Source: Tubiluchus corallicola
Taxonomy: Eukaryota; Priapulida; Priapulimorpha; Priapulimorphida; Tubiluchidae
Length of the DNA: 64,000 bases
Direction: 5' to 3'
Assembly: GCA_030141605.1 (NCBI GenBank)
Contig: JAQGDQ010000137.1
Coordinates: 124,001 to 188,000, forward strand
The translations under genes were made by a program, and so were the position numbers. The notes below the pieces were generated by a model. It saw only the letters and a list, made by a program, of their open reading frames with translations, was not told the origin of the DNA and did no database searches. The first letter of the stretch is position 1. Every line of letters begins with the position of its first letter. Below, piece after piece: positions 19,907 through 64,000 of this stretch.

Positions 19907-20683
19907 AACTACTTCGAAATTACGATAGCGTCTGCTCAAACAAGCATTGAAACTGACGTTCATGATGAAGTCAGCCACCGAAGCAAAGATGAATCATACC
20001 AAGTTCGAATCCGGGATATAAAAAAAGAAAAGAACGTTAAAATTTCGCTCAGCAAAATGTGCAGCAAATTAGCGACAGTTTTGTTACTGGCAGACGATAA
20101 AGAGATCAGCAAATTACTAACGGAGATAGAGAATAAGCGAGAAGAGCTCTTCGGGGTTATTAATCAATTAGCTGAGATCGCCACAGAAATGAGTGAGTCA
20201 GACATAATTGAACAATTCGAAAATGCGACAGAACTGGTTTTCGAAAATGCAAACGAAATAATCAGCCAGGCTCAAAAAGTATTAGCATCTATTGTTGTAC
20301 AGAGACTTTCGTAAGCTCGAGAATGCAGTACAGTTCAACCTTCTGCTCGTCTGAAATCTAGGCCAGTAAATTTGTCACGCACAGCTGACGTGAGCGCTAC
20401 TGTGAGACATATTACAGGTACGACTGATGTAAACAATACAGCAGGGTTTCAAAATACAACGCCCGTACGAAACACTACGAATCCATTTGATGATGATTAC
20501 TCGTTCATTCAAGATTGTTCAGAATACGTCAACCCGTTCACTCCATTCACAGCAAATTCTGCCAGCAGAGATAAGTGGCAACAGCAAAATAATTTGTTGT
20601 ATTGGTTGTGTGAAGCTGATTATTGGTGTTTTAGGGATGGCAAAACTGTGAAGAGTCAGATTACAAAACTACACGTTTATTGA
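19907..20683 (+). pseudogene. Gag-like ORF of a retroelement, interrupted
   Basis: A single reading frame of about 258 codons is broken by one in-frame TAA at 20312-20314. The first part is charged and helical (EIENKREELFGVINQLAEI); the second is rich in Asn and Thr (TTDVNNTAG, RNTTNPFDDD). This general pattern resembles the N-terminal part of LTR-element gag proteins of the BEL/Pao type. No zinc knuckle, protease or reverse transcriptase follows, so the assignment is weak. Codon use is less AT-biased than the surrounding DNA. The frame ends inside the LTR-like block beginning at 20595. Confidence 0.35.
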
Positions 20684-28700: not shown

Positions 28701-31700
28701 GTGTCTTACTCTTCACTTCTACATATAGAGGCATTTTCTCATTGCTCTCCTCTTTATTAATGTAGTTTTTGTATCTGGCGCTATTAGTAAAGACACTTTT
28801 TGCAATTTCCGGTTTTATGCCACCGAAGGCTTTAATTGTTATTGATCTATCTGCGATAATTAGATAAATGCTACTGCAAGAAAGTTTTTTAATTAACGGA
28901 AGGCTCTGCCGCTATTAACAATTGTGTGGCTCAGCAGTTGCTTTATCCACAAGTAATCTACTATCAAGATGTGACAGAAAAACTTAGTTTAACCAACAGT
29001 TTGTTGTTTAAAGCATTGTCAAATGATGAGCTCTCGTTCATTCCTCACTATCATTGTTAGATAAAACTGTGTGCGAGTTACAAATATTTGCAAACTTGGC
29101 TGCTACTCTTATAGAAGAGGTAGTGGGACATGCACCTAGAAAACACAAAGTGCCTTTGATATTCGGGTAACCTTTGTGGCACAGCCTTGATTGCTAAACT
29201 GCTGGCTTGAGTGCAACAACACAGTCAATGTATTAATTTTTAATTAATGGAAGGCTCTGCTGCTATTAACAAGTATTTGGCTCAGCAGTTGCTTTATGCA
29301 AACAGTAAAACCCATAAGCAAAAGGATAATGCATCAGTAATGTCTTAAGAAGTCACGTAAACCTAAAAATTAAAGAATTACTCTTATAGCATGGCATCCT
29401 AGGCAACTGCCTAGTTTGCATAATTGGAGTCGACCATAGTTAATGATCTTGCAAAAATTGAAAGGAAATGCGGATATAAAAAACATGGTCTTGTAGTCTA
29501 AACTTTACCTTGCATTACACTACATTGCTTTGCATCACTTTGTTTACCTAACACAGGATCCAAGCGTTTGTTCACTCAGCGCGAGGTACATTTTGCAACA
29601 CAGCAACATTTCAGCTACTATGTGCATTCTCTTCAGTAGACACAATTGTTGAGGAAGGTCCACTCCAGCTTGCAAGTAGTTTGTTAAATGACACATTCGA
29701 ACCACACCCAATGCTGAAAATATTTCAGAGGTGCAAATCTGTGATTTAAATAAGTAAAACTTTAAAAAAATTTATAATTTATAACATACTTTTACATATT
29801 TGTTTTTTAATGCATGAGATTGTTGTAAATTCAATTTCATTTCATTCTTTACAAAACAGCGCCGTGTGTCATAAAAAGGGCATTTGGGTTTAAAGGTGTC
29901 TTAATACAATGCACTAAAACCTTGACAAATAGTAACTACCAATCTTTTCATTTGGAATGCTCACTTGTACGAGCCAACAGGGCACTAAAATACCAGGAGT
30001 AAGCTACTATCAAGACGTGTATAAGTACTTACAAAGAAAAGCAGCACTATAATCCATTCTCAGTTTTTGAATTCCCATTTCTGCCAACAGTTCCAATGGT
30101 ACCGTGCCTGCTAATGTAGGAGCAGATACTTCACCGCTGTAGGAATCGTGCACAAATTTTGCCACCTTAGTCTCGTTATCCTTGCGCACCTGAGCAGATA
30201 AAATACGTTGATCAAAAACTAGAATAAATGGATCAAAGCTAATTACTTGAGCAGTTTCTTCAGCCTTGTGTTTTGCTTAAGATAAGTATTACTGGTCCTA
30301 CACCAAAACTATGTAAAATATTGGGCCAGTGTAATTATTTAATTGATATTAAAGACTAGTAGTTTCAGTAATCATGGTAGCTAGATTTTTAACTTTATTA
30401 GCTTACCTAAACTGCATTGGATAAACTATAATGTTATTTTAACCATCTGTTAAATATTGTGCATGACTTTAAAAAAAATTTCATTAATGCAAACAAAAGC
30501 TTGTTTATATTGATGAAAAAATAACACAAATTCATTTTGAAAATGACCTGAAATACAATGTTAAAATATTTTCAGTAAACTTCAGTCAACAAAACTAAAT
30601 GAGATTTCGTCATATCTTGCACATACCATTGGTAACACCAATGACGTCTGGAGCGCATTTGTTACAGCCTTCAAGCTAGAAGTCAGTTCAGCATACGATG
30701 TGCAACCTTAAACAAAATATGTAAAAGAAAACACAGACTCATTTGATAAAGAACACTTTACTCACTTAATAAAATTATTTACATTTACAACTAGTATTGG
30801 GAAAACACTTGACTAATAACTAATGAGATATCGATTTAATTTTATGTAGTCAAAATTAGAACAAAAATATTATAACAGGTCTGACAGTTATTGCAAATGT
30901 TAATATCCTAAGGCAAGGGAATAGCAGAGTGGTTTTGATATGAGTTTAGCTGTGGAGAGCTAAGAAATTTCAAGCCTAGCAAACCAATGGATCGTTGACT
31001 GCTGTTAATAACGAAATCAAGGTCGTTTGATCTGCCGTATTTCTCTTGCTGAAAAACACTGTAAACATCTCTGTCAATTATCTTCGACAAAGAGCTCTGT
31101 TCTAGTCCTGCTTTAAATATGAAATTTTATTGGGATGCTAGCATACCTATTCAGTCATGCAAACAGTGATATATTTTGTAGTCTGAATGTCAAGGAGTGT
31201 TTGTGAAGAAGCAAAGCACTGTTCCACAACTTTTACTAGCAGTTTTTTTAGAACAAACACAACTTTATCGGAGCTATTATTATATTAAAATAGGATAACA
31301 ATTCTATAAAACATGATAGCAATTTATTTAAAGACAGCTTTAAATCTGACAGACAACACAAGCCTGCCATAAGGCTCTTACTGTAAATAGCAAACTACAC
31401 CTACATAAGAGAGATTATTAATAACCCATTTTCACCCCAAATGCCATGTGCCAGACACAACAACAGCAGGTATGGTTCTTTGGTATGATTCAACCACATT
31501 ATCGAAGAACATAGTATTCGTTAAAGCCAAACCAATAACATACTTAAAAATATAATTACGTACAACAATTTTTGTTCAATTAATACCAATGAAAAACACG
31601 CAAGAACTTAAAGGACAGATTTTATACAGAAATTTACATAAAAAAGTGAAATTGTTCAGGGTCTCATTACAGAGGAGCATCACTAAGAACGAGCTACATT

Positions 31701-34700
31701 CTGGTCGTGCCACAATGATACTTGTTAAAAACGAACATGGCGTAAAACTAATGTATCTATACCTGCAAGTATTTCCCACAGCTGATCAGTGAAGTCCATG
31801 TCTGATCGCTGTAGAAGAAGCATACCATCAGAATTCACTTGCATTGTCACATCAAGCAAAGTTGGCTCGGCTGCTTCGATGAAGGTAATATCACCTTCAA
31901 ATTCTGGATTTTCAACATCTAAAAAACATCCAAAAAATCCTGTTTAGTATATTTAAAGCTTCGTACAGCCACTCAGCCTACACGTGCTCCAAACGACAAT
32001 TAAGACTATGAATAGCTGCTACTTGTAGCTAAGCCTTGAATCTAGCAGCTTTAACAGCTATTAAATTTATATCAGTTCGGTAATGAACCTTAGCTGTAGA
32101 GGCAACTGCATGCTACTCTTAAAATGCATGCTTCTTATTATAAAACCTCAACCTTAACCTCTATAAAGTCACTTGATACAAAACCTAAATCTTAATTTAA
32201 ATACCAAAACTGCTTTTCTGTTTAAGGGTCATTGTTTTTACAACAGAACAGCTGTTATTCGGCAGCAATACATTCTGTTTTGTCTTGACTGGCAATATAA
32301 CAGAGTAGATTTATTATATAACAGAGTAGAGTTTCGGCATATCAGGTATATTGGCAGATAGTGATAAGCAAGGCTTGCAGTATACCTCATATTTAAGACA
32401 TTATGGACATTTGCAAAAACCAAATGTTGGTATTATATCAAAGCTGGCATTAAAGTGATAGCTGGTATAACAAGATTTGAGTGTACCTTTCATTAATTTT
32501 TTTAGTCTTTTTTCGACAGATGATTCCTCTGCAGCCTTTGCCCACGTGATGTTACCAGTTTCCATAGCAATCACTAATTCCTATAACAAATGATAATGCA
32601 TCATAATTCAGCATAACAGCATTTCTTTACACGGCTAGAATGGTAACATAATGTTACATAATTTAAATAGTAAACATTAGTATTCCATGCTCACTATGTG
32701 TTTTAAAGGAGTGCCACACTTATAAAAACTGCTTTTTAATCAGACGCTCTCACATTCACTAATTCCTATGACAAAAAAGCACCAATTCAACAGTGAGACA
32801 GCAATATGATTTTTTTAAACAGCCAGTGTATGGTTAAAAACTACAACATGATTTAAACAGTAAACATTAGTTAGTTATCTTCTATCCCCATTATCTGTTT
32901 AGCAGATTGTCATTCTTACAAAGCATCATGTAGATGTGATATGCATGCTTGCAAAAAATGACCATAAGTCGGCATAGTTAAAACTATGTTATGATGTTTC
33001 AAAGCAGAATGCACCAAAAATTGGGTCAAATATGAATTTTTGTTTTTGTAAAAACACAAAAGATGCAAAAAATTCAATTTTACGAAACCTTTCCCTCTTC
33101 TATGGCTACAACCTAGCATTGCAATTGTGAAAAAACATTTACTTTTAAACTCCGATAGTAGCTCGCGGCAACAGTCATTTTGCTCGAGTTTTTCCTGTTG
33201 CCAAGCCCAGATCTTAATTCTGGAAGAGCCATCTACTGGATTTAAACATAACTGCACGGTACTCTTGCAGGGTCCATAAAAACCGACCTTTGTACGGTTG
33301 CCAAGTGTTCAGCAGAAACACAACAAAAAACAATGGCTGACTTTAACAGCGATATTCTCAAGATTACATTTTTCAGCATGCAAATTACTTCAATCTGGAT
33401 TATCTCAGCTTAGAAAAAACATCGAGAGATGAACTTGGTATCAAAACGATCCTCATGAATTGGAATTCAGGATTTGTGAATAGCTAGAAAAGCTTAACTG
33501 CAGTCTTATGGACATTTCTGTTATGCAAGTACACATACATTAATATATTACCTCAATCAAATGTAGTTCCATGTATGACTTATGCATTGGACTAGATGGT
33601 CCACCAGGCACAACTTTCATATTCTGTAAACCAAAAAAGAAAACAGCAATAGACAACACATAATTAACATTAAACTAGACTTTTTTGTAAATCAATAAAT
33701 AAAGCTACTCACAATAAGTGTAAGTGAAGTAGATGCTGGAATTTCTAGAATGCTAGCAACTTTTGACCATTTGAAATCCACCATAATCTTGCTGTTTCCA
33801 GTGGCTTCTAAATCACCCATGATAAGATAACTGGCAGAGGCTTTTGTTTCCTAATTTAAATAAAAAATCATAATCATGTTAATAAATAATAAATGTTGTA
33901 GCGATGTCACCTTCGCCATAATCAAGTGTTCTTAACCATGCTGAGCATAGCTTATAAGCTAATTTCTTCTGCTATGCTCATAGCCTGTCACCCACCACCA
34001 TTTTGCTGTGTCAAAAGTGTGTTTTTCATTATAGCTCAAAAAAGGCTACTGTTCACTACACAAAGATATGATGCTGCAAAAATGGCTACTGCTATATCAG
34101 AGTCACATTAACCAGTCAAAAACGGAGGAACAAAGTATTGCGAGAGATTGTAATCAGTCACGGAAAATGTGTAAATATAGGGAGAACTCTTCTAAATGCT
34201 GAAAATTATATTAAAAATAGAAAGCAGCAAGCAATGCATGCTTTTCTCCAACACATCAATGTATTAACTAACAAGAAATTAAGTCTCAACACAAAACTTC
34301 AATTATTTAATGAACATATTATCAGCGTATTCATGTACAATAGTGAAACAGGGGGTATAATGATTATTCAAGAAAAGCAAGTCTATGTGTTTCATAGAAA
34401 TCTCCCCAGGAAAGTTTTAAAGATAAGATTGCTGTGTATAATGAAAAATGAAGATTTATACACTAAAACGAAAGAAATTCATTAGAGTTCAAAAGTCAAG
34501 TTCCGAAGATTAAGATGGCTAGGACACGTTTCAGATTACCAAGTGAAACACCAGTAAGAATCGCCTTAAAGAAGCCTTAAAACCTTGCAAATTATGACCT
34601 GGCAAACCAAAAAAACAACTTGGACAGCTAAGACAAATAAAGATGTTCAACAACTTCAACCAAATCTAGCTTTAGAACAGAAGCACTTTAGCTGCAGATA

Positions 34701-37476
34701 AGAGTGGGTGGAATGATCTTTTAAATAGTAATGACACAATGTCTACAACAGATGAAATGAGACTTTGATGATGATGATGATGATGATTATATGTCATAGA
34801 GTGACCTAAAAAATAATTCAATTATTCACTGCGTGATTAAAGATTTCATACTTGAAGAAATTATACGGGGCTAAAATTTTTAGCAATAATCTGTTTTATT
34901 TTGTACAAAGTAGAAGTCTTTTGTGGTAAGTCTTTGTGATTGTAATGCAGATGTGTGCAGTTAGCACAATTCTTTAAAGTGAGCTCATCATGTTGGTATC
35001 AAGACATTAGGGGCCTTCAGTGCAATGCACTAGCTACATCAACATTATCGCTGGGAAAAAGTCCATTCTAGTAAAATTACTTGATAAAATTTGTAAAATT
35101 TGTTGAAAAAAGAAACACATTCACTAATGTTTCTAAACGCTTACTGAACTCAACTTTGTTTACAACACCAGACATGAACTTACTGTGATGTTTTCAACTG
35201 CAACTGAGTTAAATTTCAACATATAAAGGCAAATAAAACACAAATTACATGATTAAATTAAAGTTTAAAAATAAATTGGTAGTAATATTAAATACCCAAA
35301 AAGTTAAAGAGTAAAACGCTGAAGATAAAAATACTACACAAACAAAAAAAGAAACAGTCACTTGTGTTCAGATTCTCTATCGAAAGATCTTATTCTTTGC
35401 TGAAAGTTTTCAAGAAACATTATAAAACATCTTTTACTTCAACTGAACTACATTGATTAAATGAGCAAATGGATAAATAAAGTCAACAAAAGCTACTATA
35501 CTTTGATAGGTTCTGATAGGTTAGACTGTTACTCAATGCCACTCTATGTTAAACTCCAACTTGTCAACAGTGTGCCCTAATTTTCGCATCATTGCTCCTA
35601 CCTCTGGCCCTTAAACAATCTAAGTCCATATCCCAAGTGTCTACTTTGCAAGTTTTGTGACTTTAAGTATTACAGTTTAAGAATTGTCCAATGTTATGAC
35701 TCGATACCTAACAGGAATGACGAATGATGAAATCAGTGAGTGGGTTCTCTCAGAATCCGCTGCTTGTGGATTAAAAACTGTAAAACCAAGAGTGGATACG
35801 TACTTGCTTGGCATTCCTCCCATAGAAATGTGAACCCATTACTCCAGACAGGTTCAGCATAGCTTTGTCATTCTGAACAAAAGGTCCTATAAAATAGGAA
35901 ACAGTAATAAAATATCTCTCAGAAACACTTACACAGCTCAACAAACGACTGATGGCAAAAAATACAGATCACTTGAAAGACTGGAAATGTGAAAAAGTTG
36001 GAATACAGCAGCCCAGACTTGAACCAGGGACCTTCTGCACACAAAGCAGATGTCTTAGACCACTAAGCCAATGTATTCCTCAGCAAATGAGGCAGTCGAA
36101 AGTTCACGCCTTATAACTGCTAACTAAATTCAGCATTTTGCTAGATAACTCACACTAGAGTGATTTAATTTTTAGGCAGGCTTATGTCAACTTGCAACAC
36201 AATGCAACTGAAGACCTGGCAACTGGTGGCATCTGATACGCCGCCAGTTCCGAGGATACCCTGTCAACACGCAACTCATCTCAGTTCCAATGACTAGCTC
36301 ATGTTCTACTCGTGCCATACGGTATCCACCCAGTTTTACAATGATTGTTGTCTGGTAACGTGGTCTGGTCAGAGATTTTTTTCATTGCGTACACTCACTT
36401 GTTGTAGGCCAGAGCAATGTTGCAAATCGCGGGAACTCGTATCTTCCTAGTTGCTGGAAATCAGTAGCAGTCAACTTGAGCTAACTATCTAGTTACCACA
36501 AGTACATCAACAAAGTAAAGCATTTAAAAAATAACACTCCAAGTAAAAAAATTACCTGTTGAAAATATGTTATATGTTGATAAATAAGTGTCATTCCTAT
36601 CACATATAAACATTCTTCCAATATAAACAGTATGTTCTTGATCCTTCCCATCACAAATAACCCAGAGTGGTGGTATTTCCTTGTCGCCAAACACAGTCTG
36701 TTTACATTTTGCAAGCAGTGCATATTTTGATAACAAATTTCTGAAATAAAACAGCTTTTTTGAGTGCTCAGCATATCACTGATTGTCCTGCATAGTAAAA
36801 ATTTTTAATAATAACAAACTAGAAGAAGCAGAATCATAGTTTATGTAATTCTAGAAAATGCAGACTGTTTAGCAGTTCATTTCTGCAAAGTTGTCTAGCT
36901 ATTTGTAACTAACAACTGTAACACGAAATCCTTGATATAGACTATAACAACTGCAACATGAAATCCTTGACATAAACCATAACAACTGCAACACATAGAA
37001 GTAGAGATGATTTTAATGTTTAGCAATAAACTTAATTTTTAAAACGAGTCGTGCACCATTACAGGAAATTCTGAGAAACGCACTGGAGAATGAGCCAACA
37101 TTAGATAATTACCAATCTCCTTGACACAGCATGATTTATCTAAGTCCATCACAATCTTAAAGCTGCTACATATTTTAACAAAGTACTTGTAACTTCAATA
37201 TGTCAGATAAACCAATAATTTAATCAATTACACACCTTGCGATCTCAGAGCCTACTGGAGAAAAATCTGTGCTGCGATCACATGACACCTTTCGTTTTTC
37301 TGGTGTTTTCACTTGTCCAGTTGACAGGTCAAGAAAAGAAACCTTCAGGGGAGAACCTCCAAAGTAAAATGGTGAGTCCACTGAAAGAGGTGAGTTCTGG
37401 TCACTGTTAGGATAGCTGCGTTCATCTGCTAGTGTCTGAAGTAACAAAAAAAGTTAAGTTGTTAACATCACTTTAT

Positions 37477-40500: not shown

Positions 40501-43500
40501 TATCCAGGAGTCTGGTGGTTATAGGTAATTGAAAATATTAGCTAAACGCCTGTACCATTAACACTGCATAAGGCAACTATTGGTTTATTTGCATATGCAA
40601 AACATTTTAGAACACCATCATACATACAACACATGTCCACAGTCTTAACTTTGAATTCATGTGGTTTGAAATGAATCTTACAAACTTAATTTTATACATG
40701 TGTTACCTTTCTCCTACTCAAGATGCTCTTACCGAGGATGAGCTTATAAATCAGTTACAATTGTCTCATTATATGCTAATTAGCAGCTTGTCAAATGTTC
40801 GCTACGGATTAATGCCAAGTGTGCAGTATGGTACCCTCCTGATGGGGAAAATCGTTTTGGTTCCAAATTATATGCATTTACTATTCTGAATCAACTTTTG
40901 CAGTTAATAACACATCCTACCCACATTTCTGATGTGTCTAGCTCTTTGACTGAGCATATTTTAACTGATGGTACCGGATTAATAACAGGGAGTGGTGTTA
41001 TGTCACCTATATATACAGCTGATCATAGCTCAATTTGTGGTAAAATGCTTATAAATATTCCAATTGTAGTTTCCTACCAAAGAAAAATTTTCTATTCTAA
41101 TAGAGCAGATTGGTGTGGTTTAAATCAAGCTATTCACGCTACTGATTGGAATTTAGCTTTTTGCAAATGAAACTGCTGAATCTGTTTGTGCTAATTTTAT
41201 TACTAACTTGTCAAATTTGATTGAAGACTATGTGTCACATAGAACCCTAACCATTCAAACTGGGACAAGTTGTGGATGAACAACTACATCAGAAAATTAA
41301 GAAAAGCTAAAGAAAAATCTCATAAATACTACAAACTGCATCAAACTGCTGAATCTTGGGAGAAATGTAAGAATACATATAATAATTCTTTAAAAAAGGC
41401 AAATGTGATTATATGAAGAAACTAAATTCTAAATTACTCAATCCACAAACCTGCCCCAAGGTCTGGTGAAACAGTGTCAAATCATTTTATAAAAGCAAAC
41501 ATGACTTTGTTATTCCACCACTTAAGTTAACAACTGTGTTATGGCTGATACCAAGCTCAAATGTAGTACATTTAACAAATATTTAACTGCAATAATGCCG
41601 TACTTCCTCCTTTCTCTTTGGTCACTGATAGTGTTTTGTCAACTGTTGACCTGTCTGAGCATATAGTTAGTAATTTCTTGAAATGTGTAAAACTCGGTAG
41701 ATCAACAGGGCCCGATTGCATAAATAATATTCTTTTGAAACAATGTTCTCAGTCGTTTCTGTGCCTTTAACGTTATTATTTAAAATGTCTGTTAACAGTG
41801 GAATTTTCCCGACAGTATGGAAAACAGCTAATGTTACTCCTATATTTAAAAAAAGTGATAGAGAACTTACTAATTATCGGCCAATTTCTCTACATTTCTG
41901 TGTTTCTAAACTCTTTGAGTGGACTGTGTATAAAGAACTTAACAGTTATCTTGTTATTGACAATAATCTGTTGAATGAGTGTAATTCTGGTTTCAAGCCA
42001 GAAGATAGTACAATCAATCAATTGGTATCTATTGTCCACAAAATATACTCTGATCTAGATGCTGGATATGAGGTACGGGCAGTTTTTCTCCATGTAAGTA
42101 AAGCTTTTGACAAGGTTTGGCACAAAGGTCTCATATTCAAATTATCCCAGCTTGGCATCAGTGGTCCCTTATTACGTTGGTTAGCTTCTTATTTATTTGG
42201 TCGTAGTCAACAAGTAGTTATGGAAGGTGCCTCATCAGATTCTTTGTCACTGGCTGCTAGGCAGCCTCAGGGCTCTATTCTAGGTTCTCTTTTGTTTCTT
42301 GTCTACGTAAATGACATTACTCATAATATACAGTGTGACATACATCTTTTCATAATGGATACAGTTACAGACCCAGTAGTTTCTGCAATGCATCTAAATT
42401 TCGACCTAGAGACCTTGCAGCACTGGGCTAATAGATGGTGTGTTACCTCTAATCCACAGAAAACTGAAGTAATGTGCTCTTCTCTCGTAAAATCCAGCAA
42501 CGTCATCATATGCCAATTTATCTTAATAATATAGCTTTAAAACATGTTAGTAGTCATAAGCACCTAGAGATGTATTCTACATTCTATATTTCCATTTATG
42601 TACCTTTTATAAAATTGTGAATCACTTAGCTCTCCAGTACTTTTTTAATGTTTTGCCTTCTCGTGTAAGGTATATTACATTGTATCCAATCCGTAATAAT
42701 GAAAACTTTTCTAATTGCACCTGCCACTCAACTGCTTTTGCTAATTCTTTTTTTTGCCTCAGTTAAGTGCTGGAATATATTTCCACTTGATGTCAGTAAT
42801 TCTAACACGTTAAACATCTTTAAATCTCGACTACAGAATCACATGCGTTTTAATAGGTGGCTTACTTACTTTTCAAGTGGTACTCAAAATTCATCTATAC
42901 ACCATATTAAAATGAGAGTTGGTTTTTGTCAACTTAATTATGATTCAATCCTCAGAAAATGAAAAAATCCCAATGGGTAGCTGGTATCACCTAATTGTCA
43001 ATGTGGTTCTGCTTATGAAACAGTAGGTCATTACTTAATTAGGCTAGACATGACTTATTTACAAATCTCTGCACTCTTTTTTTCAGCTTTTAACATCAAT
43101 GTTTACAGTCTTGCAACAAATAAACTTGCACGTTTGTTGCTGCATGAGAACCATAACCTAGATAATTCTGTGAACACTCAAATTTTTGTCTTTGTGCAGT
43201 CTTTTATTTCAAACACTAAGTGCTTTAATAGTATTAACTTTGTTACTCTTGTTACATAGTAATGTTTATATTTATTGCAACATTTTTTGTACATTGTGGT
43301 CACCACTATTCTGCATCTGTATAGCGTTTGCTCCCACGAGGGTAGAACATATCTCAGTTGTAAAACTGTCCGCTTCAAACCTAGCATATATTACATTTTC
43401 AATAAATTATATTTAAACCAAAGAATTAGTATACTTCCACAATTTGGCACCCTAGGCTACTGCCTAGTTTGCTTTAATGGTAGAGCCGGCCCTGCTTAAC

Positions 43501-44499
43501 TTAGTTTTTCTCCTTTAGCGTGTGGCACCGGTCTTATTTGAAAGTGCGCTTTTGTTGTCGAGGTACAGAAACCAGATGTTAATTGATCACATACAGATAA
43601 CTGGTTACTAGCAGACTACTGAAAATACATGCGAAATACAGTGCTATCAGATTACCTTTTGACTTTCAGACTACTATATGCGATGTGCATTTCTTAATAG
43701 CTTTGTTGTAAAAGCAGCTTCATGGTTATATATTAGTAAAAAACAAGTCTTTCATACCTAGTTAAAGTTCCAGAAGTAGAATTACATTATTTGACCTTAC
43801 CTGTACCCTAGAGTACACATTGTTACACACACTAACACCTGCATACAAAAAGTAAAAAACAATTAAGTAAGAACAGAAGAATTTTCATCTTACCCCAATT
43901 ATCTGCTCACTGTTTTTCTCTAGGCATCTGAAACACAACAAAACAACATTTTCACTGACTCATAAATGATATATAAATGTTTTTTTACGAATAAATTTAA
44001 AATATTCATTAACATGCAAGCTGTGTAAGTTCACGTTTGGGATATTTACAAAAAAATGCTAACAACATCCGCAAAACGTCTTGTGATATAATCAGCTTTA
44101 TTAAACTAACATGTCAACAGGCAAACAAACAAACCAACTGACCAACCAATCAATTAAAGGTTTATCTGTAATTAAAATAACAAAGATTTTCACTACCTGG
44201 ACATGTGTAGCTTATTAACTAACTTTTATACGTTTGTTTTTTTATATATATTGAAATATACAGCACTTGTTTTCTTGTGAGATGCATTTGCACGATGTAG
44301 GGGCTAGTGCCCATCTAACTAGCAAATGGTGAGGAGAAGGAAAAGGAAAAAGACGGTGAGGAGGAGACAGTGGAATAATAATCTAATGACAGAGCAAAAT
44401 ACAACACATTCAATAACAACCAGAAGTCACTCAAATTAACTACATTTACCTCTTCAGAGCAGATGCAAAATCATTTGCAATGTTGTCTAAAGGTGGCAT
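25752..44499 (-). CDS. ZWILCH: Kinetochore protein Zwilch (RZZ complex)
   Basis: Sixteen coding exons, high to low: 44450-44499, 43894-43927, 38740-38877, 37236-37435, 36556-36740, 35804-35886, 33713-33850, 33552-33623, 32487-32580, 31763-31918, 30627-30706, 30033-30189, 29548-29713, 28289-28381, 27597-27712, 25752-25858. Total 1869 bases, 622 residues (human about 590). Matches to human Zwilch seen by eye: IPPLWVICDGKD (human LPPLWVRCDSSD), QRSDMDFTDQLWEIL, FVHDSYSGE, AGTVPLELLAEMGIQKLRMD, FLFPVPTTEVIAHCY. With ROD and ZW10 it forms the RZZ complex, which recruits Mad1/Mad2 and dynein-Spindly to unattached kinetochores. The chosen ATG lies 9 bases into exon 2 (44450-44507); MPPLDNIANDFASALKRCL aligns with the human start. 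A 5' UTR exon ending at 47227 is likely. Introns are rich in transposons. Head-to-head with RPL4. Confidence 0.93.
28243..28306 (-). repeat. Duplicated exon end and splice donor in ZWILCH
   Basis: The 20 bases at 28287-28306, which include the end of a coding exon and its donor, recur at 28243-28262, 44 bases downstream in transcription. Both copies read GTTACAG followed by GT (GTAGGC used, GTGAGA duplicate). Use of the second donor would add 44 bases with an immediate in-frame TAG. Confidence 0.8.
28899..28960 (+). repeat. CTGCTG/CAGCAG repeat, copy 2
   Basis: GGCTCTGCCGCTATTAACAA then GTGGCTCAGCAGTTGC and TTTATCCACAAGTAA, as at 24242-24302. It lies in the ZWILCH intron between 28382 and 29547. 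Confidence 0.65.
29249..29306 (+). repeat. CTGCTG/CAGCAG repeat, copy 3
   Basis: GGCTCTGCTGCTATTAACAA then TTGGCTCAGCAGTTGC. The block at about 29165-29235 just before it resembles 23055-23110 next to the protease pseudogene (GTGGCA-AGCCTTGA ... CAACA-AG-C-ATGTATTAA), so both belong to a scattered family. Confidence 0.6.
29393..29439 (-). mobile_element. hAT terminal fragment
   Basis: On the minus strand: CTATGGTCGACTCC, then GCAAACTAGGCAGTTGCCTA and GGATGCC. It matches the hAT end at 43437-43494 over the CTAGGCAG..GCCTAGG core; the CAGGGCCGG terminus has mutated. Confidence 0.5.
31395..31525. repeat. Dispersed repeat B, copy 2
   Basis: Same-strand counterpart of 11200-11330, inside the ZWILCH intron 30707-31762. 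Confidence 0.5.
34138..34790 (+). mobile_element. LINE 3' fragment (reverse transcriptase tail) with GAT-repeat end
   Basis: Opposite in strand to ZWILCH, in its intron 33851-35803. The frame 34138-34485 gives NRKQQAMHAFLQHINVLTNK, LNTKLQLFNEHIISVFMYNS and VFHRNLPRKVLKIR, the connection region after the reverse transcriptase of APE-type LINEs. After a frame change, RRLRWLGHV and WNDLLNSNDTMSTTDEMRL follow, then (GAT)n at 34767-34790, the usual tail of this class. It is 5'-truncated and frame-broken, a dead copy. Confidence 0.8.
36000..36079 (-). repeat. tRNA-like sequence (degraded tRNA or SINE head)
   Basis: On the minus strand, seven perfect acceptor-stem pairs (GGAATAC/GTATTCC), a five-pair anticodon stem TCTGC/GCAGA around the loop TTTGTGT, an A-box-like TGGCTTAGTGGTCTAAG and a B-box GGTTCAAGTC. 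Five extra bases separate the T arm from the acceptor stem and the T stem relies on wobbles, so it is unlikely to be a functional tRNA. The loop would place TGT (Thr) in the anticodon. Confidence 0.6.
36911..36988. repeat. Tandem repeat, about 38 bp x 2
   Basis: Units of the form ACAACTGCAAC-TGAAATCCTTGA followed by ATA-AC-ATA, in a ZWILCH intron. Confidence 0.7.
37479..37514. repeat. (AAT)n microsatellite
   Basis: About twelve AAT units in the ZWILCH intron between 37436 and 38739. Confidence 0.9.
39560..39850. repeat. Tandem repeat, about 65 bp x 4
   Basis: Four imperfect units, each with TTTTTTGAACTTG, AAGTTAGTGTGTTTAGTTA and CAATACCCAGTACTG. They lie in a ZWILCH intron about 1 kb upstream of the LINE coding remnants on the same strand, so they could be part of that element's 5' region. 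Confidence 0.75.
40650..43260 (+). mobile_element. Decayed LINE with endonuclease and reverse transcriptase remnants
   Basis: A non-LTR retrotransposon of the APE class, antisense to ZWILCH in its intron 38878-43893. 40898-41170 resembles the end of the endonuclease and linker (LITHPTHISDVSSSLTEH, SPIYTADHSSIC, YSNRADWCGLNQAIHATDW). 41743-42534 is a 263-codon reverse transcriptase frame: WKTANVTPIFKKSDRELTNY, NYRPISL, KAFDKVWHKGL, QPQGSILGSLLFLVYVNDI. The motif A aspartate is His (FLHVSKAFD) and the motif C FADD is lost (LFIMDTV), so it is catalytically dead. 42699-43250 carries a C-terminal part (LDVSNSNTLNIFKSRL, HHIKMRVGF, a Cys-His cluster). Several stops and frameshifts separate these pieces. 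Confidence 0.88.
43437..43494 (-). mobile_element. hAT terminal fragment
   Basis: On the minus strand: CAGGGCCGGCTCTACCATTA, then CTAGGCAGTAGCCTAGGG. This is a classic hAT terminal inverted repeat with its subterminal palindrome. No partner end was found nearby; related to 29393-29439. Confidence 0.65.
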
Positions 44500-45383
44500 T
44501 TCATTGGCTGAAACAAAAATTAATTTTATTAATTCAATGGAAAGCAAGAACATCCAAAAACAACAACAGACACCTGTTCAAATGCATTGCACAAGAGGTT
44601 CGAGGCACAAGAACCCTACAGTGTGTTAACAAGGGAAAACAAAGAAATGCTAAAATGGAAATATTCCAGTAGGTTTTTCCTTTTCTTCCTGCAGCCACTT
44701 TGTAAAAGAAACCACTTAAAGCAATGTTAGATACTGAGTTTAAATCACGTCTCGCTCAGCAAATATAACTTGATCATATGCCTTTTCTTTCTGTTTAAGA
44801 TGCTTTCAAATAAGAATTTTACCACTGTTTCATTACAATTACTGGTAGAACGTTGCTAACTGGGTCATTGAAATTCAGTTTGATTAAATTTTATTGCACA
44901 AATACAATAATGTACCATAGCAAAAAAATACAATTACAAAAATACAAAAAAACAAGTACAAGAACAAATACAATTATGCAATGTTGCAAAAACATGAGTT
45001 TGTACAAGTTATTTATTTACTTAAATAGTCTACTTAGATCTAATAACATTTCTCTAACAGCACCAAAGAATTTTCGCTTAGGCCAAAACTCTTCACCTGT
45101 CTAAATAAATGATCATTTCTTTCCACTTCAATAATTTTTTACAGAAATAAATCTCAGCAACTCCTTCTGCAATGTCATCAAAGTAGTGGAGCCATGTTTC
45201 CTTAGGATTGAAAGTGATGCTCCATTGTTCATCATATTTTTAACATTTCTCTCAGATGTCTGTATGAACTAGCTAACAATGATACACCATCAGCATACAC
45301 AACTGTACCAACAAAAATTGATACCAAATGTAATGTGATAACCAAACCCAGCCATTACGTTACTGACAAATAAGATCATCGAT

Positions 45384-46136
45384 ATTATATACAGTGGCGG
45401 ATTATGATTTTATGGGCCTTAGGCTTGAGCTTGGAACGGGCCTTTTAAATGTTGCTACACTGCTGAGCTGACGTGTTTTTGTGGAGCTCTCGTCGTTTGT
45501 AAGTTTGTTTAATTTTATGAGTTTTTGCCCACCGATTGTGATAAAAATTATATCTTCTTGATCCTTGAGTTGTGGACTAGGACTATATAAACACGATTAC
45601 AGCTTGGTGAGTTTCTGGGTTAGATGTCAACTAAAATAAGCCAATCAGAAACTCAAAAAGTAACTTTTGTTTCTTACTAATTTGCAGTGGGGAACGATCA
45701 TTCTCTGCTCTGAAAAGGATAAAAACTTATTTACGGTCATCTCTAAAGGATGACAAATTAAACAATTTATCACTGATGCATATTGAGTCAGATATGTTGA
45801 AAAAAATGGACTTTTCAGAAATTATAACTGACTTTGCCCCCAGAAAAATTCGGAAACTGAAATTTTGAACTTAAACTTAAACTGTGTAAACGTGAATTGT
45901 GTAAACTTAAATTGTGTAAACTTGATTTGTGCAACCCGATTTGAAATATAGTGACTGACTTTTGAAAAAAAAAGTTTTTTCTATATTTTATTTTGGCGGG
46001 CCCCTTGCTCTTTTGTCAATTTATTTTTTTTACAAAAAAAATTTTTTTTTCGTTTTATTTTACCGGGCCCCTTTTGATCCCGGGCCTTAGGCTTCAGCCT
46101 ATTCAGCCTATAGGGCTATCCGCTACAGATTATATA
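45384..46136 (+). mobile_element. hAT transposon, internally deleted, with perfect 8-bp target duplication
   Basis: The element proper is 45392-46128 (737 bp). The flanks 45384-45391 and 46129-46136 are both ATTATATA, the 8-bp duplication diagnostic of hAT. Ends are CAGTGGCGGAT and, inverted, CTGTAGCGGAT; GGGCCTTAGGCTT occurs near both ends. Inside, about 45690-45868 encodes the transposase dimerisation region: GERSFSALKRIKTYLRSSLK, DKLNNLSLMHIESDM. The rest of the transposase is missing, so it is non-autonomous. It lies in the first ZWILCH intron. The perfect duplication suggests relatively recent insertion. Confidence 0.92.
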
Positions 46137-46506
46137 GCATACAGTACAAGAGGTAAAACTCCACCCTGCCTATCTCCAGATCTAATAGGAAATTCATCAC
46201 TGTAATTATTAGACCACCTAATCGAGGCAGAAAATTTAATATACGAGTTTGATCATTTGTTTGTTTTTAATAGTATATGTTTGCTTGTAGTTGTATTAAG
46301 CTACCATGCCTAGCTGACCAACCCCTGCTAACCAGCCGTGAACTTCTTGGAGTAAATTGCAACCCTGCAATCTTCCATTGTACAGCAACGCTGTACAACT
46401 AGTGTTCGGTGCTATCAAGACGACGATGCGAATGATTACTATACTAATTAGTTAGCTAAATTATCTATGTAATTCAAATTATACCAAAAATGTTAATTAT
46501 TGTTAC

Positions 46507-46748
46507 TACTAACACTGAAAATAACCTTTGGCACAAAGCTTTTATGAATTAACTTTATATGTATGTACTGTATTGTGTTTTGTTAATGTACATTATATTC
46601 ATGTATTTGAACAATAAATTAAATAGTAACACTGAAAATAAACCTTTTGCACAAAGCTTTTATGAATTAACTTTATATGTATGTACTGTATTGTGTTTTG
46701 CCAATGTACATTATATTCATGTATTTGAGCAAATTGAAAATTAAATAG
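46507..46748. repeat. Tandem duplication, about 120 bp x 2
   Basis: 46507-46626 and 46627-46748 are nearly identical (AACACTGAAAATAA, GCACAAAGCTTTTATGAATT, ATGTATGTACTGTATTGTGT, AATTAAATAGTA), differing at a few positions and by small indels. It lies 500-700 bp from the RPL4/ZWILCH promoter region, inside ZWILCH intron 1. Confidence 0.9.
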
Positions 46749-47214
46749 TACGTATCACATCGAGATAAAAACTTAACTTATACTAAGTTATAGCAATTTA
46801 AATAAGTGATAACCATTGAAATACTCTACGGATTTTAGATTTAAGTGGAAAAACTAAATACAGATTTATATTTTATTAATAAGTAAATGTGCTTAACCTT
46901 TCTACTTAAACCTAGAACCTTTAAACTACCACAAAGTTTTAATTTCGTACAAATTTACCGCTAAAAACCTAGACAAGCGTAGAAATGAATGTTCACCGTA
47001 CAACACCCAATAACGTTGTGGAAAGATAAAAAATAGTTATCAATATTAAGATAAGACATTTCATCAAAACTTAAATTTTAGAAAATATTACTCAATAAAA
47101 GCTTTTTCGTAAATGCTTGCAATAAAATTTTATTTTTTACTGCATAAAAATTGCTTCTTTCCATTAATCTAATACCTAAGATGACGAATCAACGGTTGAA
47201 TTTACATGCGAAGT

Positions 47215-47330
47215 AATATAACTGACCTGCCAAGTAAATCCTCCTTTTCGTGTTATAGTTGGGTTACGAGGAAGACTGGATTTCTAATAGAACATTTCAA
47301 GACAGTTTATGTAGAAATGGTATATTGCAT
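47215..47330. promoter_or_regulatory. Shared ZWILCH/RPL4 promoter and first exons (tentative)
   Basis: On the minus strand GGCAG/GTCAGT gives a good splice donor at 47227/47226, a likely end of the ZWILCH 5' UTR exon. On the plus strand CTCCTTTTCG at about 47241 resembles a 5' TOP start of ribosomal protein mRNAs. An ATG at 47317-47319 is followed directly by GT, so exon 1 of RPL4 would carry only the start codon; joined to exon 2 it gives MASALARPL, close to human MACARPL. A competing ATG/GT pair exists at 48014-48018. Transcription start sites are not proven. Confidence 0.45.
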
Positions 47331-50300
47331 GACTTTCTTTGCATAGTGTTATTGTAAGAAAACTTTTCTCAAGTGGTAGTTTTTGCTAATAATAAACTAC
47401 CATATGTTATATTGTAGTATTCTGTTCACTCAGTTTTTACTGCAATGCTTCATTTCATTTCACGAGAGCCATTTATGAATTGAATTGAATTGAATTTAGA
47501 TTATCATATCTTCTAAGTCTAATAAATATGCTCATACGAGCTGTTTACATATCTGCTATCCTACCTACTGCTGTATTTACAATTAAGGATTTTAATTCAG
47601 ATATGCTTGAAAAATTGCATATTATTAAAACACTCCAGATTTATGTAATAAAGAGTAATTTTTACAGTTTGTGAAACATGACTCCAGTTAATTATTAGTG
47701 GTTTGCATTTAAGGATTCAGAATGGGGGCATTCAACTCATTATAGTATGACATTTAACAGCTAAAGATGCAAAGTCTCCTGAAATGCTGTTCTAGTCATC
47801 TCTTCCAAATTTGTATTTATTAATTTTCTCATCACATTCTTAATTGGGTTTATGATGATGAAAGTCCTTTTCCGTCCATCCTTGGATTAACCTCTTTGCT
47901 GTTACAGCGTGTGTTTTTACTCAACATTTCAAACTAATTTTGTGCTTTACCTGTATTTTTATTTTACATTTTATTGCACTGGTTATTGTAATTCGCCATT
48001 CACTTGACACCGAATGGTAAAATGTTCAATTAGCATTGCAAAACTAGAATAATGAAAAGTTATTTCTGATTTAAAATTCGTTAATAAGTATGACCTGACC
48101 TGGATCTGGCTTAACGTAGTTAAAGGAAAGCTGCTTAAACATATAAGTTAGACTTGAGGTCAAAAACCTCCTGCAATAGATCTTGGCATTGCAAATCTGT
48201 ACATTAAATTGATATTGTCATGATTGTGACTTATTAATGTTAAAGATATACATATACGATTCACGAGCAGTTTACTGCATGATCAGATTTTTGCATTAAT
48301 GTTTATTAAGCTTGTTATTAATGTTCATGTTTAATTGTTTTTAGGCATCGGCTTTAGCCAGGCCATTAGTGACTGTGTATAATGAAAAGAATGAACCAAG
48401 TGGGTCGTCTGTCGCCTTGCCTGCTGTTTTTAAGGCTCCAATTCGCCCAGATATCGTCTCTTTCATCCATAACCAAATGAGGTGTAACAATCGAATTCCG
48501 TATGCTGTGTCAAAATCTGCAGGTACAAACAAATCAATTGCTGCACTTTTGTATCGATTTGTTTTTTTATATTAATTTGTTCAAAATTACAATTTGTAAG
48601 AATGTGGTGAACTTTGTTTTCCTATATACTTATGCTAAATTACATACTGCATGCTAAATCTGACATGATATTGATCAATGATGCTTAACTATTGTTCAAG
48701 TAACTTAACAAAAATCTCTTTCCAACCTGGCTGCCTAAGTTTGCAGTGTAGTTAATAGTGCACAAGCATTGATAGAGTAGCACAAGAGGTCTGTCTCCAA
48801 TGATGTTATTTAATTCTGCCATATGAAGGTACAATGAAATCATTTTTCCGTTCCACACTGAGGAGACATTGCAGAGTGATGCAAAAGATTTGAAGACATA
48901 AAGATAAAAGTAGTAGCATAGTGTATGTAATACATGTTTCAAAAGTATAATGTTAATAAACTGTGAGTTAGTACTTGATATAGTTGTGCAAAAAATGCTT
49001 TTGCTTGGTATACTTTCAATGTGTGCTTTTAGCATATAGTTAGTAGTGACTGCATTGTCTGTATACAAAATGTGGGGCATTTTATGTTACTTGTGTGGTC
49101 GCATTATTTTGTGGCATTCATTAAATTGCAGTTTTTATTGTTCTGTAGGTCACCAAACGTCGGCTGAATCTTGGGGAACTGGTCGTGCTGTTGCACGTAT
49201 TCCCAGAGTCCGGGGAGGTGGAACCCACCGTTCCGGCCAAGGTGCGTTTGGCAACATGTGTCGCGGAGGTCGAATGTTTGCCCCAACCAGGACTTATCGG
49301 CGTTGGCATAGAAAAATCAATGTTAATCAACGTAGGTATGCCATGTGCAGTGCCATTGCTGCCACTGGAGTTCCAGCCCTGGTAATGTCAAAGGGTAAGT
49401 GAGATTTATGACTTTCTAAAGCTTTTTTGAATATTGTTTTAAGTAATTACTTTAAAAATGGCTTTTCCTTGATGTAATAATTTTGTAAATTATGTGGGTG
49501 TATATGTATATTAACTTTTAGCCATGTGCCCACACTTTTGGTATTTTTTTACTTTAGTTTTCGGTTGAATCATGTAAACGCACAAAAGCGGTACTACATT
49601 AGAAAGTCTAAAAGAAATTTCACATCCACTAAGACTTGAACCCGGAACCTATGCTTTCCATTACACTTTTGGCTTAGGTTGTTGCTAATCTTGTGTGAGT
49701 GATGACATTGTGGCTTTGCACAAAAAATGTGGTATTTTGGTGATGAAAATATCTTATTCTTGGTTCGTGTTGTTGATTTTTAGTGATAAACATGAAGTTC
49801 TGATAACGTACCACATTTTGATCCATTGCCCGCTGCTACGCATCTCAGAGTATAATGAATAATCATTTAAATGTTTTCGTGTTTGTTGTTAGGTCACAGA
49901 ATAGAAGAAACTCCTGAAGTTCCCCTGGTCGTAACTGACAAAATTGAGGAGCTAAAGAAGACGAAGGAAGCAGTCGCTGTGCTAAAAAAGTTTCGTGCTT
50001 ACACCGATATTTTAAAAGTATGTTTTTTGTCTCTGTTTTTAACCACTTCGCTGCTTCTATGACGAGAATCTTCCATTATTCCAGCTGGCTTGTATGATGA
50101 GACTCTACCATAAATGTAACATGCTAGCCATGATATCTATGCCAATATAATGATGTTTACATATGCCATGTACATTTCCTAGACAAGTTACAGAAAACAT
50201 ATAGTGGTGTTATCCTTCATTGGCTAAAATGTTAATGTGTAAGGCACAAAACTGTATTTTTCTTAAAATTTCTTTTTTAGCCAGTTAGAATGCAGATTTT

Positions 50301-53300
50301 ACAGGTCATGATGTTAGGGGCTTTGTGAGGCATTTTTGGATTTCAAAAATACACATCTTTGGTGTTTTAAATTGACATTGTAGAGATACTGTAGGCTGTA
50401 ATCATAAGGCTGAATTAAAGGTTAGCTCAAAATTTACTATCATTTCACTTGGTACTTATCAATTTGGGTGTATGTGAAATTTCTTGCTCTGTATTCCTCT
50501 GATTTTAGTGATAAAACTTTGTCTATTTTTTCAGATAAACTGGTTTTCCCATTAATACTTAAGTTATAGTTAATCTCCTTTGTTTTCTATCTCAGGTCAT
50601 GAAATCGAAAAGATTTCGAGCAGGTAAGGGTAAAATGCGAAACCGGCGTCGTGTTAAGCGATTAGGACCTCTTATCATTTACAGCAAAGATAACGGAATC
50701 CGACATGCTTTCAGAAATATTCCAGGTCAGTCACCATTTAATTCGACTTTCATTTTTGGTGTTGAGATTAATTATAGGTATTGCATCATTCAGTTGATCA
50801 TGTTGTTACAGAATGAAATGTGACATGTGTCAGTGATGAGAACATTTATTCTTCATGGTCCGTGTTGTTGATTTATAGTGATAAACACGAAGATCTGAGA
50901 ACATGTCACACTCTCATATTTCAATTGTGTTGTATTTTACTTGAAAATACTGACAGTTCATCGCCTTACAAGTGACAGTTGTACGTGCAAGTATTGAAAC
51001 TTTTAATTTGTAAAAATCATTTTTTAAATACAATTTGGAACCTGCACGATGCATTCCAATGCATTCATATTGTCTAAGGCAGGGTCCTACTCAGATCAGA
51101 TAGCCGTGCCAGGACCAGAACCTAGCACATTGTCAAGGCTACACCTCTAAAGTGAGCCATTCAATTGACAGAGATGTCTAGTCACATTAATGCGTTGTTA
51201 CATCCTCCCACCGCAAGGTAAACAGCCAGTAAAGGGAATTTCAAAGCTGTATTGAAAAAATGAGTGTACCTATATTTCCTATCTTTGACAGTGTTTAATG
51301 AACTTCACCGCGCAATTATATTAATTTTATCGGTAATGCTTTGAATTATAACTTCTGTTTTATCCCATTAGTACTATCTGGTGTTCTATTAGTACAAGAA
51401 TGACATGGAGTTCTTATTTTTAACAGGAATAACACTGATTAATGTTACTCAACTTAATCTGTTAAAAATCGCGCCTGGTGGCCATGTTGGACGTTTTTGC
51501 ATCTGGACAGAAAGCGCGTTTCGCAAGTTAGACATATTATATGGCACATGGAGGAAGCCTTCTCGGGCAAAAAATAATTACAAGTGAGTGCCGTATTTGT
51601 TAGGTAATAGAACTGCCTGATTTCAATTCGGAAATCTGAGCTTAACTTTATCACTTTTGGAAAAAATGAATGGTCCAATGTTAAGTTTATGTTTTAGAGT
51701 TATTGTGTACTAAATGTAACTAGAAAGTTTACTATGTGCTATTTTACTATACAAAAAAACTTAGTGGAGATTGTGTACTTTTGATGCGTATTCTCTCTAA
51801 AATCTAATTATTTCAGTTTGTTTCAATTTGTTGTTTGAATTTTTAAGCATGGATTTAAAAATGAAACATCTCAGTTTGTTTTACTATATAGTGATCATTT
51901 TTTTACATTGTAGTCTTCCAATGCCTAAAATGTCTAACAGTGATCTGTCAAGGCTTCTTAAAAGTGAAGAAATACAACAGGCAATACGACCGCCAAAGTA
52001 AGTAGAACAGCGGCAATATTTTTATTATGATATTGTTTAATAGTGTTAAACTGTTGTTTTATAACTTGATGAAAAATTTATTTATGATGTCGTTACCTAA
52101 GTCTGCCATTAAATATTGGTAAAGTGGCATGTTAAAAGATCTGTCTCCAATGATGATATCTAATTCTGCCATATGACAGTGCAATGAAATCATCTTTCCG
52201 TTCCATACTGAGGAGACATTGCATGAATTGTTGTGACTTTTTGAAGGATTTAAAGACATATGGATAAAAAAGTGGCAGCTTAATGTAGGTGTGTTAAATG
52301 ATGCAAAATTTGCGATATGGTAGCGGTACAATGTGGTATTTTTTCCAATGATACAATATCAATAATCTGTTTGATAAGTAGACGATACTGTATAATAAAT
52401 TATTTACAATGATGAAAGCAATACTGACTGTGTGGTGAGCTACTGTACAAGGAGTCTCATTGTATGGATTGAAACACTGCATGTTTTTGCTGACTGTTTC
52501 CCGATTAACGTATAGTTACATGTAATGTATGACAAAATTTTCTTTTTTGTTTAGTCATAAAATAATGTTAATGTGTGAGCTGCGCAGACTATTATATTAT
52601 ATGTAAATCTATTATTACGTAACATATTTATATGGACTGCACTGCCTACAGGTAACTAGGGAAATGTCTCTAAGAATACTGCAATTGGCATTGTGTGTCA
52701 CTAAACTGATTAAAGACACCCATTATTGCCGAAAGTACAGGAAGGTTATTCAAGGAACTTTATGAATAACATGCTTTTTTAATTTTTTGCAAAATTCCAG
52801 TAGATAAATGAAAAAGCAAAAAGATGTGAACTGATTTTATAAAGGTGAACGATAATCGGTAAATCACACCAAATTTTACACGATAACGATATTGCTAGAG
52901 TAATATCAATACGTATCGTTAGCGTCCCTAGCTTAATGCATGTAATTTGTATAGTAATCAGCATATATAATCATTGTACAGGTAGGACTATTGACATGTT
53001 CAATGTAATTGCAGCAACAATATGACAATTACATAGTTTTTGTGTAACTTGTCTGACATTGCATATGTTTACAGTAAAGTTGTGAAGCGTCATGTATTGA
53101 AGAAGAACCCATTGAAGAATCTGCGTGTGATGTTACGTCTTAATCCACATGCTGCCGTTCTGAAGAGAAATGCCATACTGACGGGGCAGAAGCGCAGAAG
53201 AGAAAAAGATGCAATTCTCGCTGAAAAACGTGGGGTATGTGTACATTTTCTTTTGCCCTTAGGCACTTCTTTACTTGTGCAACTGTGGCTTCCTATGTTT

Positions 53301-53949
53301 TGTAAGTTGAACTGTCCATCCGCTTTGATTCAGGATGGATTTATTTCTCTTTTATGAAATTCGACAAAGTTAATACCTATGAAGAAGCATGTAGATGCTG
53401 TTCAAATGTAGCACAAATCCATGAAAATTCAAAATTTTTACATTTCTGTTTTATTGCTCTATTAATGCCTCCTTTTTAACTTTGAGCCAAATTCACAGCA
53501 ATGGTATTTTAGGCCTTTTCTGTGTAATACAGTTTAATTATTGACAGTCTAGGATTTTCAGCCTAATTGCAATCCATTTTAAGCTTTAAATATCTTGATA
53601 ATTCTCCCAAAAGGGAGGTTTGAAGCTCGAGATAGGGATTTTTTTGCAACCAATATTGTACGTCAAACCTTTTTATATCACTTACTTTAGGACTACAAAA
53701 AAGTTGCCAATATAGCCAGATGAATTGATATATGTGTATCTGTGCGAACATACGAATTTTGTTTTGCTCAGAATTTGTGCATTAAGTTTTGTTATAACAA
53801 GGTTTGATTATATAATAAAGAGATTGATTTGCAGAACATGATTTTGCTGTTGATTGTTTGCACTTTCTTTCTTTTTTCAGTTGTCAACTGACGACAGCAC
53901 TCCAAAAAAAGGCAAAGCAACAGCGAAGAAAGGCAAAAGCAAGAAGTAG
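47317..53949 (+). CDS. RPL4: 60S ribosomal protein L4 (uL4)
   Basis: Exons: 47317-47319 (tentative, ATG only), 48345-48522, 49149-49394, 49893-50017, 50596-50725, 51427-51583, 51914-51997, 53075-53234, 53881-53949; 1152 bases, 383 residues (human 427). Exons 2-9 are secure. Matches to eukaryotic L4: [132 protein letters not shown]. It is a large-subunit protein whose extended loop lines the peptide exit tunnel. The lysine-rich tail ([14 protein letters not shown]) is shorter than in vertebrates. Introns at 48523, 49395, 50726 and 51998 carry one box C/D snoRNA each. AATAAA lies at 53992. Confidence 0.97.
48792..48868 (+). ncRNA. Box C/D snoRNA, unidentified family, copy 1
   Basis: Lies in the RPL4 intron 48523-49148. 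The terminal stem TGTCTCC/GGAGACA is perfect; the C box ATGATGT (48800-48806) has one deviation from consensus; the D box CTGA is at 48858-48861. It shares TAATTCTGCCATATGA and TTTCCGTTCCA-ACTGA with the copy at 52142-52218. I could not assign the rRNA target. Confidence 0.82.
49570..49685 (-). mobile_element. tRNA-derived SINE, copy 1
   Basis: In an RPL4 intron, antisense to the gene. It has a B-box-like CCGGGTTCAAGTC and the tail TTAGACTTTCTAAT then GTAC and GCTTTTGTG. Head and tail match the plus-strand copy at 56659-56785. Confidence 0.6.
49728..49815 (+). ncRNA. SNORD18: U18 box C/D snoRNA, copy 1
   Basis: Lies in the RPL4 intron 49395-49892. Terminal stem TGTGGTA/TACCACA, C box GTGATGA at 49740-49746, D box CTGA at 49800-49803. 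The guide TTGGTTCGTGTT differs from the usual U18 element TTGGTCCGTGTT by one C-to-T change that still allows a G-U pair with the 28S rRNA sequence AACACGGACCAA. U18 is also intronic in vertebrate RPL4. Confidence 0.92.
50821..50908 (+). ncRNA. SNORD18: U18 box C/D snoRNA, copy 2
   Basis: Lies in the RPL4 intron 50726-51426. Terminal stem TGACATGT/ACATGTCA, C box GTGATGA at 50833-50839, D box CTGA at 50895-50898. The guide TGGTCCGTGTT is identical to the human U18 element against 28S rRNA. It shares GTGTTGTTGATTT-TAGTGATAAACA-GAAG with copy 1, so the two arose by duplication. Confidence 0.93.
52142..52218 (+). ncRNA. Box C/D snoRNA, unidentified family, copy 2
   Basis: Lies in the RPL4 intron 51998-53074. 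Terminal stem TGTCTCC/GGAGACA, consensus C box ATGATGA at 52150-52156, D box CTGA at 52208-52211. The likely guide next to box D is ATCTTTCCGTTCCATA; an upstream block TAATTCTGCCATATGA is identical in both copies. No target is assigned. Confidence 0.87.
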
Positions 53950-63957: not shown

Positions 63958-64000
63958 ATTGCGATCAGTAGAGCAGAAAAGCGCAAAACAGCTGAGCATT

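What the first reader, a model, noticed from the sequence alone, without database searches (positions are those of the whole stretch)
44450..48522. ZWILCH and RPL4 head-to-head, as in human
Here ZWILCH (minus) and RPL4 (plus) diverge from one region near 47.2-47.3 kb. In human chromosome 15q22 the same two genes are adjacent and head-to-head. If this is an invertebrate, the pair has stayed together since an early animal ancestor, which suggests a selected bidirectional promoter linking a ribosomal protein gene and a spindle-checkpoint gene.
Basis: partly seen in the sequence, partly recalled or inferred. Interest (0 to 1): 0.7.

Follow-up and report, generated by a model that had tools for sequence, protein, structure and literature searches.

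The report
Divergent ZWILCH–RPL4 pair in a lophotrochozoan
In an unnamed invertebrate, probably a mollusc- or worm-like lophotrochozoan, the spindle-checkpoint gene ZWILCH and the ribosomal gene RPL4 lie next to each other and point apart, as they do in human, which is best read as an old gene pair that stayed together; the shared control region is likely but not shown.

Summary
The two genes are real, adjacent and divergent. Joined ZWILCH exons (minus strand, 27.57-37.44 kb) match human Zwilch at E=4.8e-50, and RPL4 (plus strand, 48.35-53.95 kb) matches animal uL4 chains at about 1e-175. Neither has a second animal copy detected in the assembly. The host is a lophotrochozoan: it carries Post1- and Post2-type Hox genes. 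So the pair seen in human also exists on the protostome side, and common descent from a bilaterian ancestor is the simplest reading. The human neighbours SNAPC5 and TIPIN are on other contigs, so only the pair is kept.

RPL4's start codon lies in an unidentified upstream exon. Secure coding exons are 10.9 kb apart, with transposons between. However, a CpG-preserved zone at 46,701-47,300 (observed/expected 1.23 against a window mean of 0.51) carries a TOP-like motif also present at RPS6 and RPS8 starts. That fits one shared promoter there. Selection on it is inference. Such pairs are a known class; modest interest.

The parts
27566..37435 (-). ZWILCH, securely identified coding exons, about 12 exons from 37,435 down to the stop near 27,566
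   Evidence: Pfam Zwilch over cut-off; joined exons match human Zwilch 7qpg_B at E=4.8e-50; exon ends have AG/GT sites
44450..44507 (-). Possible further 5' exon of ZWILCH (NEMPPLDNIANDFASALKR), uncertain
   Evidence: good acceptor and donor, but no significant similarity and phase does not fit the next known exon
46701..47300 (.). CpG-preserved zone, the proposed shared promoter
   Evidence: CpG o/e 1.23 (window 600-bp mean 0.51, sd 0.21), TG/CA 0.92; second highest of the window; controls
47154..47162 (+). CTTCTTTCC, TOP-like candidate start of RPL4
   Evidence: TTCTTTCC occurs 3 times on both strands of the window and also close upstream of RPS6 and RPS8 start codons
47317..47319 (+). One candidate RPL4 start codon, ATG at a weak donor (the alternative is 48,014)
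   Evidence: donor score 2.7 (48,014: 4.0); known RPL4 donors score 4.9-10.6
45392..46128 (+). hAT-like non-autonomous element with 8-bp target duplication ATTATATA, inserted between the genes
   Evidence: about 40 other places in the genome scored, up to 98% identical; terminal repeats and target duplication read directly
41728..42534 (+). LINE reverse-transcriptase fragment between the secure ZWILCH exons and RPL4
   Evidence: RVT_1 E=4.2e-20
48345..53946 (+). RPL4, exon 2 to the last exon (exons at 48,345; 49,149; 49,893; 50,596; 51,427; 51,914; about 53,076; about 53,880)
   Evidence: match to animal uL4 chains at about 1e-175; consensus splice sites
49735..49807 (+). SNORD18-like snoRNA in an RPL4 intron
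   Evidence: 31.3 bits, E=0.015 in a 13-kb search, below Rfam's gathering score of 41
50828..50902 (+). Second SNORD18-like snoRNA in another RPL4 intron
   Evidence: 32.3 bits, E=0.0084, below gathering score

Best explanation
This is an ancient divergent gene pair, ZWILCH and RPL4, inherited from a bilaterian ancestor and kept in this lophotrochozoan. Most likely both genes are transcribed outwards from one unmethylated promoter zone at about 46.7-47.3 kb: RPL4 to the right, and ZWILCH to the left through one or more unrecognised 5' exons. Gene identity, adjacency and orientation are shown. Common descent and the shared promoter are inferred. The likely reason for retention is that a break between the genes would separate one of two essential housekeeping genes from its promoter; no special functional link is needed.
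For: ZWILCH and RPL4 identified at E=4.8e-50 and about 1e-175, each detected as a single animal gene here. Lophotrochozoan Hox complement. Human and pig neighbours listed together in PMC6904466, PMC7313177 and PMC9593086. One CpG-preserved zone between the genes, the second highest of the window. RPS6 and RPS8 of the same genome show such a peak just upstream. TOP-like TTCTTTCC inside the zone and near both RP control starts. SNAPC5 and TIPIN on other contigs. Putatively ancestral bidirectional promoters of housekeeping genes are documented in chordates (PMC6292497).
Against: No transcript data. Secure coding exons are 10.9 kb apart. First exons of both genes are unidentified. RPL5, a third control, shows no CpG peak. 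A high CpG ratio also occurs at 19.75-20.35 kb over a 135-codon open frame, so it is not specific to promoters. No other animal genome could be searched, so common descent rests on two points.
Confidence: 0.62

Rival explanations
1. The genes are ancestral neighbours kept by chance or slow rearrangement, with two separate promoters several kilobases apart.
For: Gap of 10.9 kb between secure coding exons, filled partly by mobile elements. Lophotrochozoans keep many ancestral gene blocks in general (93% of novel bilaterian blocks, PMC8851819).
Against: Only one CpG-preserved zone reaches the window's top values between the genes; the stretch 44,401-44,600 has no CpG at all. Human neighbours on the other side are not kept.
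Confidence: 0.28
2. The pair arose independently in this lineage and in vertebrates.
For: Only two lineages are compared, and the surrounding human genes are not shared.
Against: A given pair becoming neighbours twice by chance is very unlikely in genomes of some 20,000 genes, and the orientation also agrees (inference, not computed on data).
Confidence: 0.05
3. The adjacency is an assembly artefact.
For: The assembly contains bacterial contigs.
Against: The window has no N, both genes lie on one contig, exons run in order, and composition is uniform.
Confidence: 0.03

Closest known systems
Human RPL4-ZWILCH pair at 15q22.31
   Same: Same two genes, adjacent; divergent orientation as known for human (orientation from general knowledge, neighbourhood from PMC6904466, PMC7313177 and, for pig, PMC9593086)
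   Different: Here the gap holds a hAT-like element and LINE pieces, and SNAPC5 and TIPIN are on other contigs
Ancestral bidirectional promoters of chordates (372 cases in the amphioxus study, PMC6292497)
   Same: Divergent housekeeping genes kept as neighbours over long times
   Different: Those were defined with CAGE or 5'-to-5' neighbours; start sites are unmapped here, and membership of this pair in that list was not checked
RPL4-hosted U18 snoRNA genes of vertebrates
   Same: Two SNORD18-like sequences lie in RPL4 introns here
   Different: Scores are below Rfam's gathering threshold; a SNORD47-like sequence also occurs twice

Membership tests
ZWILCH orthologue | Zwilch domain and similarity along most of human Zwilch | tested here: met
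   38.2 bits over a cut-off of 25; E=4.8e-50 to 7qpg_B over human residues 168-558, plus a weak stretch at 102-160
ZWILCH orthologue | Complete gene model with start codon | tested here: inconclusive
   N-terminal exon not identified
RPL4 (eukaryotic uL4) | Sequence similarity along the conserved body, spliced and intact | tested here: met
Conserved divergent gene pair | Adjacent genes on opposite strands, 5' ends facing | tested here: met
   no recognised gene in between
Conserved divergent gene pair | Same pair and orientation in other lineages | not testable with these tools
   No animal genomes held; neighbourhood in human and pig from papers, orientation from general knowledge
Bidirectional promoter | Transcription starts less than 1 kb apart | tested here: inconclusive
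   One CpG-preserved zone at 46,701-47,300 fits, but no start site is mapped
Bidirectional promoter | Co-expression or loss of both transcripts on deletion | not testable with these tools
   No expression data

The most novel reading that the evidence does not exclude
A single promoter has tied a ribosomal protein gene to a kinetochore checkpoint gene since the bilaterian ancestor, under selection for joint control of growth and division.
Probability: 0.15. Interest if true: 0.5.

Novelty: new member of a known kind. Interest (0 to 1): 0.27.

Why it matters
If the pair is shared by protostomes and deuterostomes, it is a clean test of why some gene neighbours stay together for over half a billion years: of the human block tested, only these two genes are kept, and one is a strong growth gene while the other is needed for division. 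It also gives an easily assayed promoter. It does not introduce a new kind of system.

Tried and rejected
Exon 44,450-44,507 as the start of ZWILCH: looked good by eye, rejected as proof because of its rank and phase. An open frame at 37,042-37,194 was first included as ZWILCH and later dropped, because exon 37,236-37,435 joins directly in frame to 36,556-36,740. RPL4 start codons at 47,206, 47,317 and 48,014: none convincing. Mitochondrial COX1 for identifying the phylum: no match. Literature on a ZWILCH-RPL4 promoter: none found in the held papers. The bacterial promoter scan is not informative here.

Full report
What is in the sequence. The plus strand from 48,345 to about 53,946 encodes RPL4 in at least eight exons; the exons extracted have consensus splice sites. 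The joined protein matches animal uL4 chains in the Protein Data Bank at about 1e-175. The minus strand from 37,435 down to about 27,566 encodes ZWILCH. Pfam's Zwilch model has a single match in the whole assembly and it lies here. The joined exons match the human Zwilch chain 7qpg_B at E=4.8e-50, and the two chains of 3if8 as well. The genes diverge, with no recognised gene between them. The query used included one stretch (EIGNYLMLAHS...) that I later removed from the model and the doubtful 44.5-kb exon, and it lacks a stretch between about 36.5 and 33.9 kb for which I have no firm exon; none of this changes the identification.

Copy number. The RPL4 family model hits seven places in the genome. 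Three are bacterial operon genes on contigs of different composition. Three hits on two contigs form a mitochondrial-type L4, apparently in two haplotypes. The remaining hit is the window's gene. So one cytosolic RPL4 was detected, but the search tool warns that missing matches do not prove absence.

Which animal. 118 homeodomain matches were found. Thirty loci were fetched, and most gave a readable homeodomain. By comparison with sequences I know, they include Hox1-, Hox2/3-, Hox4- and Hox5-like genes, Lox/Ubx-like genes, and genes of the Post1 and Post2 type (L011, L022), which are typical of lophotrochozoans. This reading rests on recognition and not on a tree. The species is unknown.

Where the genes start. 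The first base of RPL4 exon 2 follows a consensus acceptor, with TAG in frame just before it, so the start codon is in an upstream exon. Within 44.4-48.3 kb only two ATG-GT junctions occur in the right phase without extra residues, at 47,317 and 48,014, both at weak donors. It has good splice sites, but its similarity to the human N-terminus is at background (rank 101 of 3,604 segments), and its phase does not fit exon 37,236-37,435. The human N-terminus used in that test was recalled and not fetched. Secure coding exons are therefore 10.9 kb apart.

What lies between. A hAT-like element sits at 45,392-46,128 with the 8-base target duplication ATTATATA. About 40 other places in the genome match it, up to 98% identical, so it is a young insertion. 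A LINE reverse transcriptase lies at 41,728-42,534. By eye, further LINE pieces flank the hAT element; Pfam did not confirm them. A tandem duplication of about 106 bases lies near 46,510-46,730.

Promoter evidence. CpG is depleted in this window (observed/expected 0.52). The 600-base stretch 46,701-47,300 has 1.23 with no excess of TG and CA, the second highest in the window, against a mean of 0.51 and sd 0.21. In genomes with gene-body methylation such zones mark unmethylated promoters (general knowledge). As controls I fetched the upstream DNA of three other ribosomal protein genes. RPS6 and RPS8 have peaks above 1.2 just upstream of the coding start and RPL5 does not; the RPS8 stretch also holds a simple repeat. 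The motif TTCTTTCC, a TOP-like start, lies upstream of the RPS6 and RPS8 start codons. It occurs three times in the window on both strands together, once inside the zone at 47,155. The motif was picked after looking, so its weight is modest.

Comparison with human. Held papers list RPL4 and ZWILCH in the same 15q22.31 block (PMC6904466, PMC7313177) and in the order SNAPC5, RPL4, ZWILCH in pig (PMC9593086). Their divergent orientation in human is my own knowledge. Here SNAPC5 (a weak 28-bit hit) and TIPIN lie on other contigs. Downstream of RPL4 is a LysM-domain gene resembling LYSMD1/2. So the pair is shared and the block is not. Whether the human neighbours are ancestral is unknown, so their absence here is only mild support for special retention.

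How it most likely works. Two essential genes share, or flank, one promoter zone. A break inside it would harm one of them, so the pair is kept. That requires no functional link between ribosome and checkpoint. Many such pairs are known: 25% of neighbouring amphioxus genes are arranged in bidirectional promoters, enriched for housekeeping functions, and 372 were judged putatively ancestral (PMC6292497). I could not check whether RPL4-ZWILCH is in published lists; the main paper on ancient animal pairs is not held, and no held paper found discusses this pair's promoter.

Verdict. It is a good new example of a known class.

Noticed in passing
window 49735-49807, 50828-50902, 48795-48865, 52145-52215: RPL4 introns carry two SNORD18-like and two SNORD47-like C/D snoRNAs (below Rfam's gathering scores); vertebrate RPL4 also hosts U18, so the host relation may be old.
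   Followed up: partly
window 45392-46128: Young hAT-like element with an intact 8-bp target duplication; about 40 other copies scored genome-wide, encoding only a piece resembling a transposase C-terminus.
   Followed up: partly
window 57975-58403 and 63766-63999, minus strand: LysM-domain gene resembling LYSMD1/2, convergent with RPL4; its first part coincides with another CpG-preserved stretch (63,351-63,950).
   Followed up: partly
window 19751-20350: Highest CpG ratio of the window (1.38), over a 135-codon open frame of unknown kind at 19,907-20,311.
   Followed up: no
L003 (G000:C1820:849671-850237): The assembly holds bacterial contigs; one over 850 kb carries a Bacteroidales-like ribosomal operon whose L4 is at most 70% identical to any genome found, so probably an undescribed associated bacterium.
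   Followed up: partly
L010-L031 (Hox-type homeodomain loci): Hox genes lie on several contigs (for example C1190, C1217, C412, C1986), which hints at a broken-up Hox cluster or a fragmented assembly.
   Followed up: no
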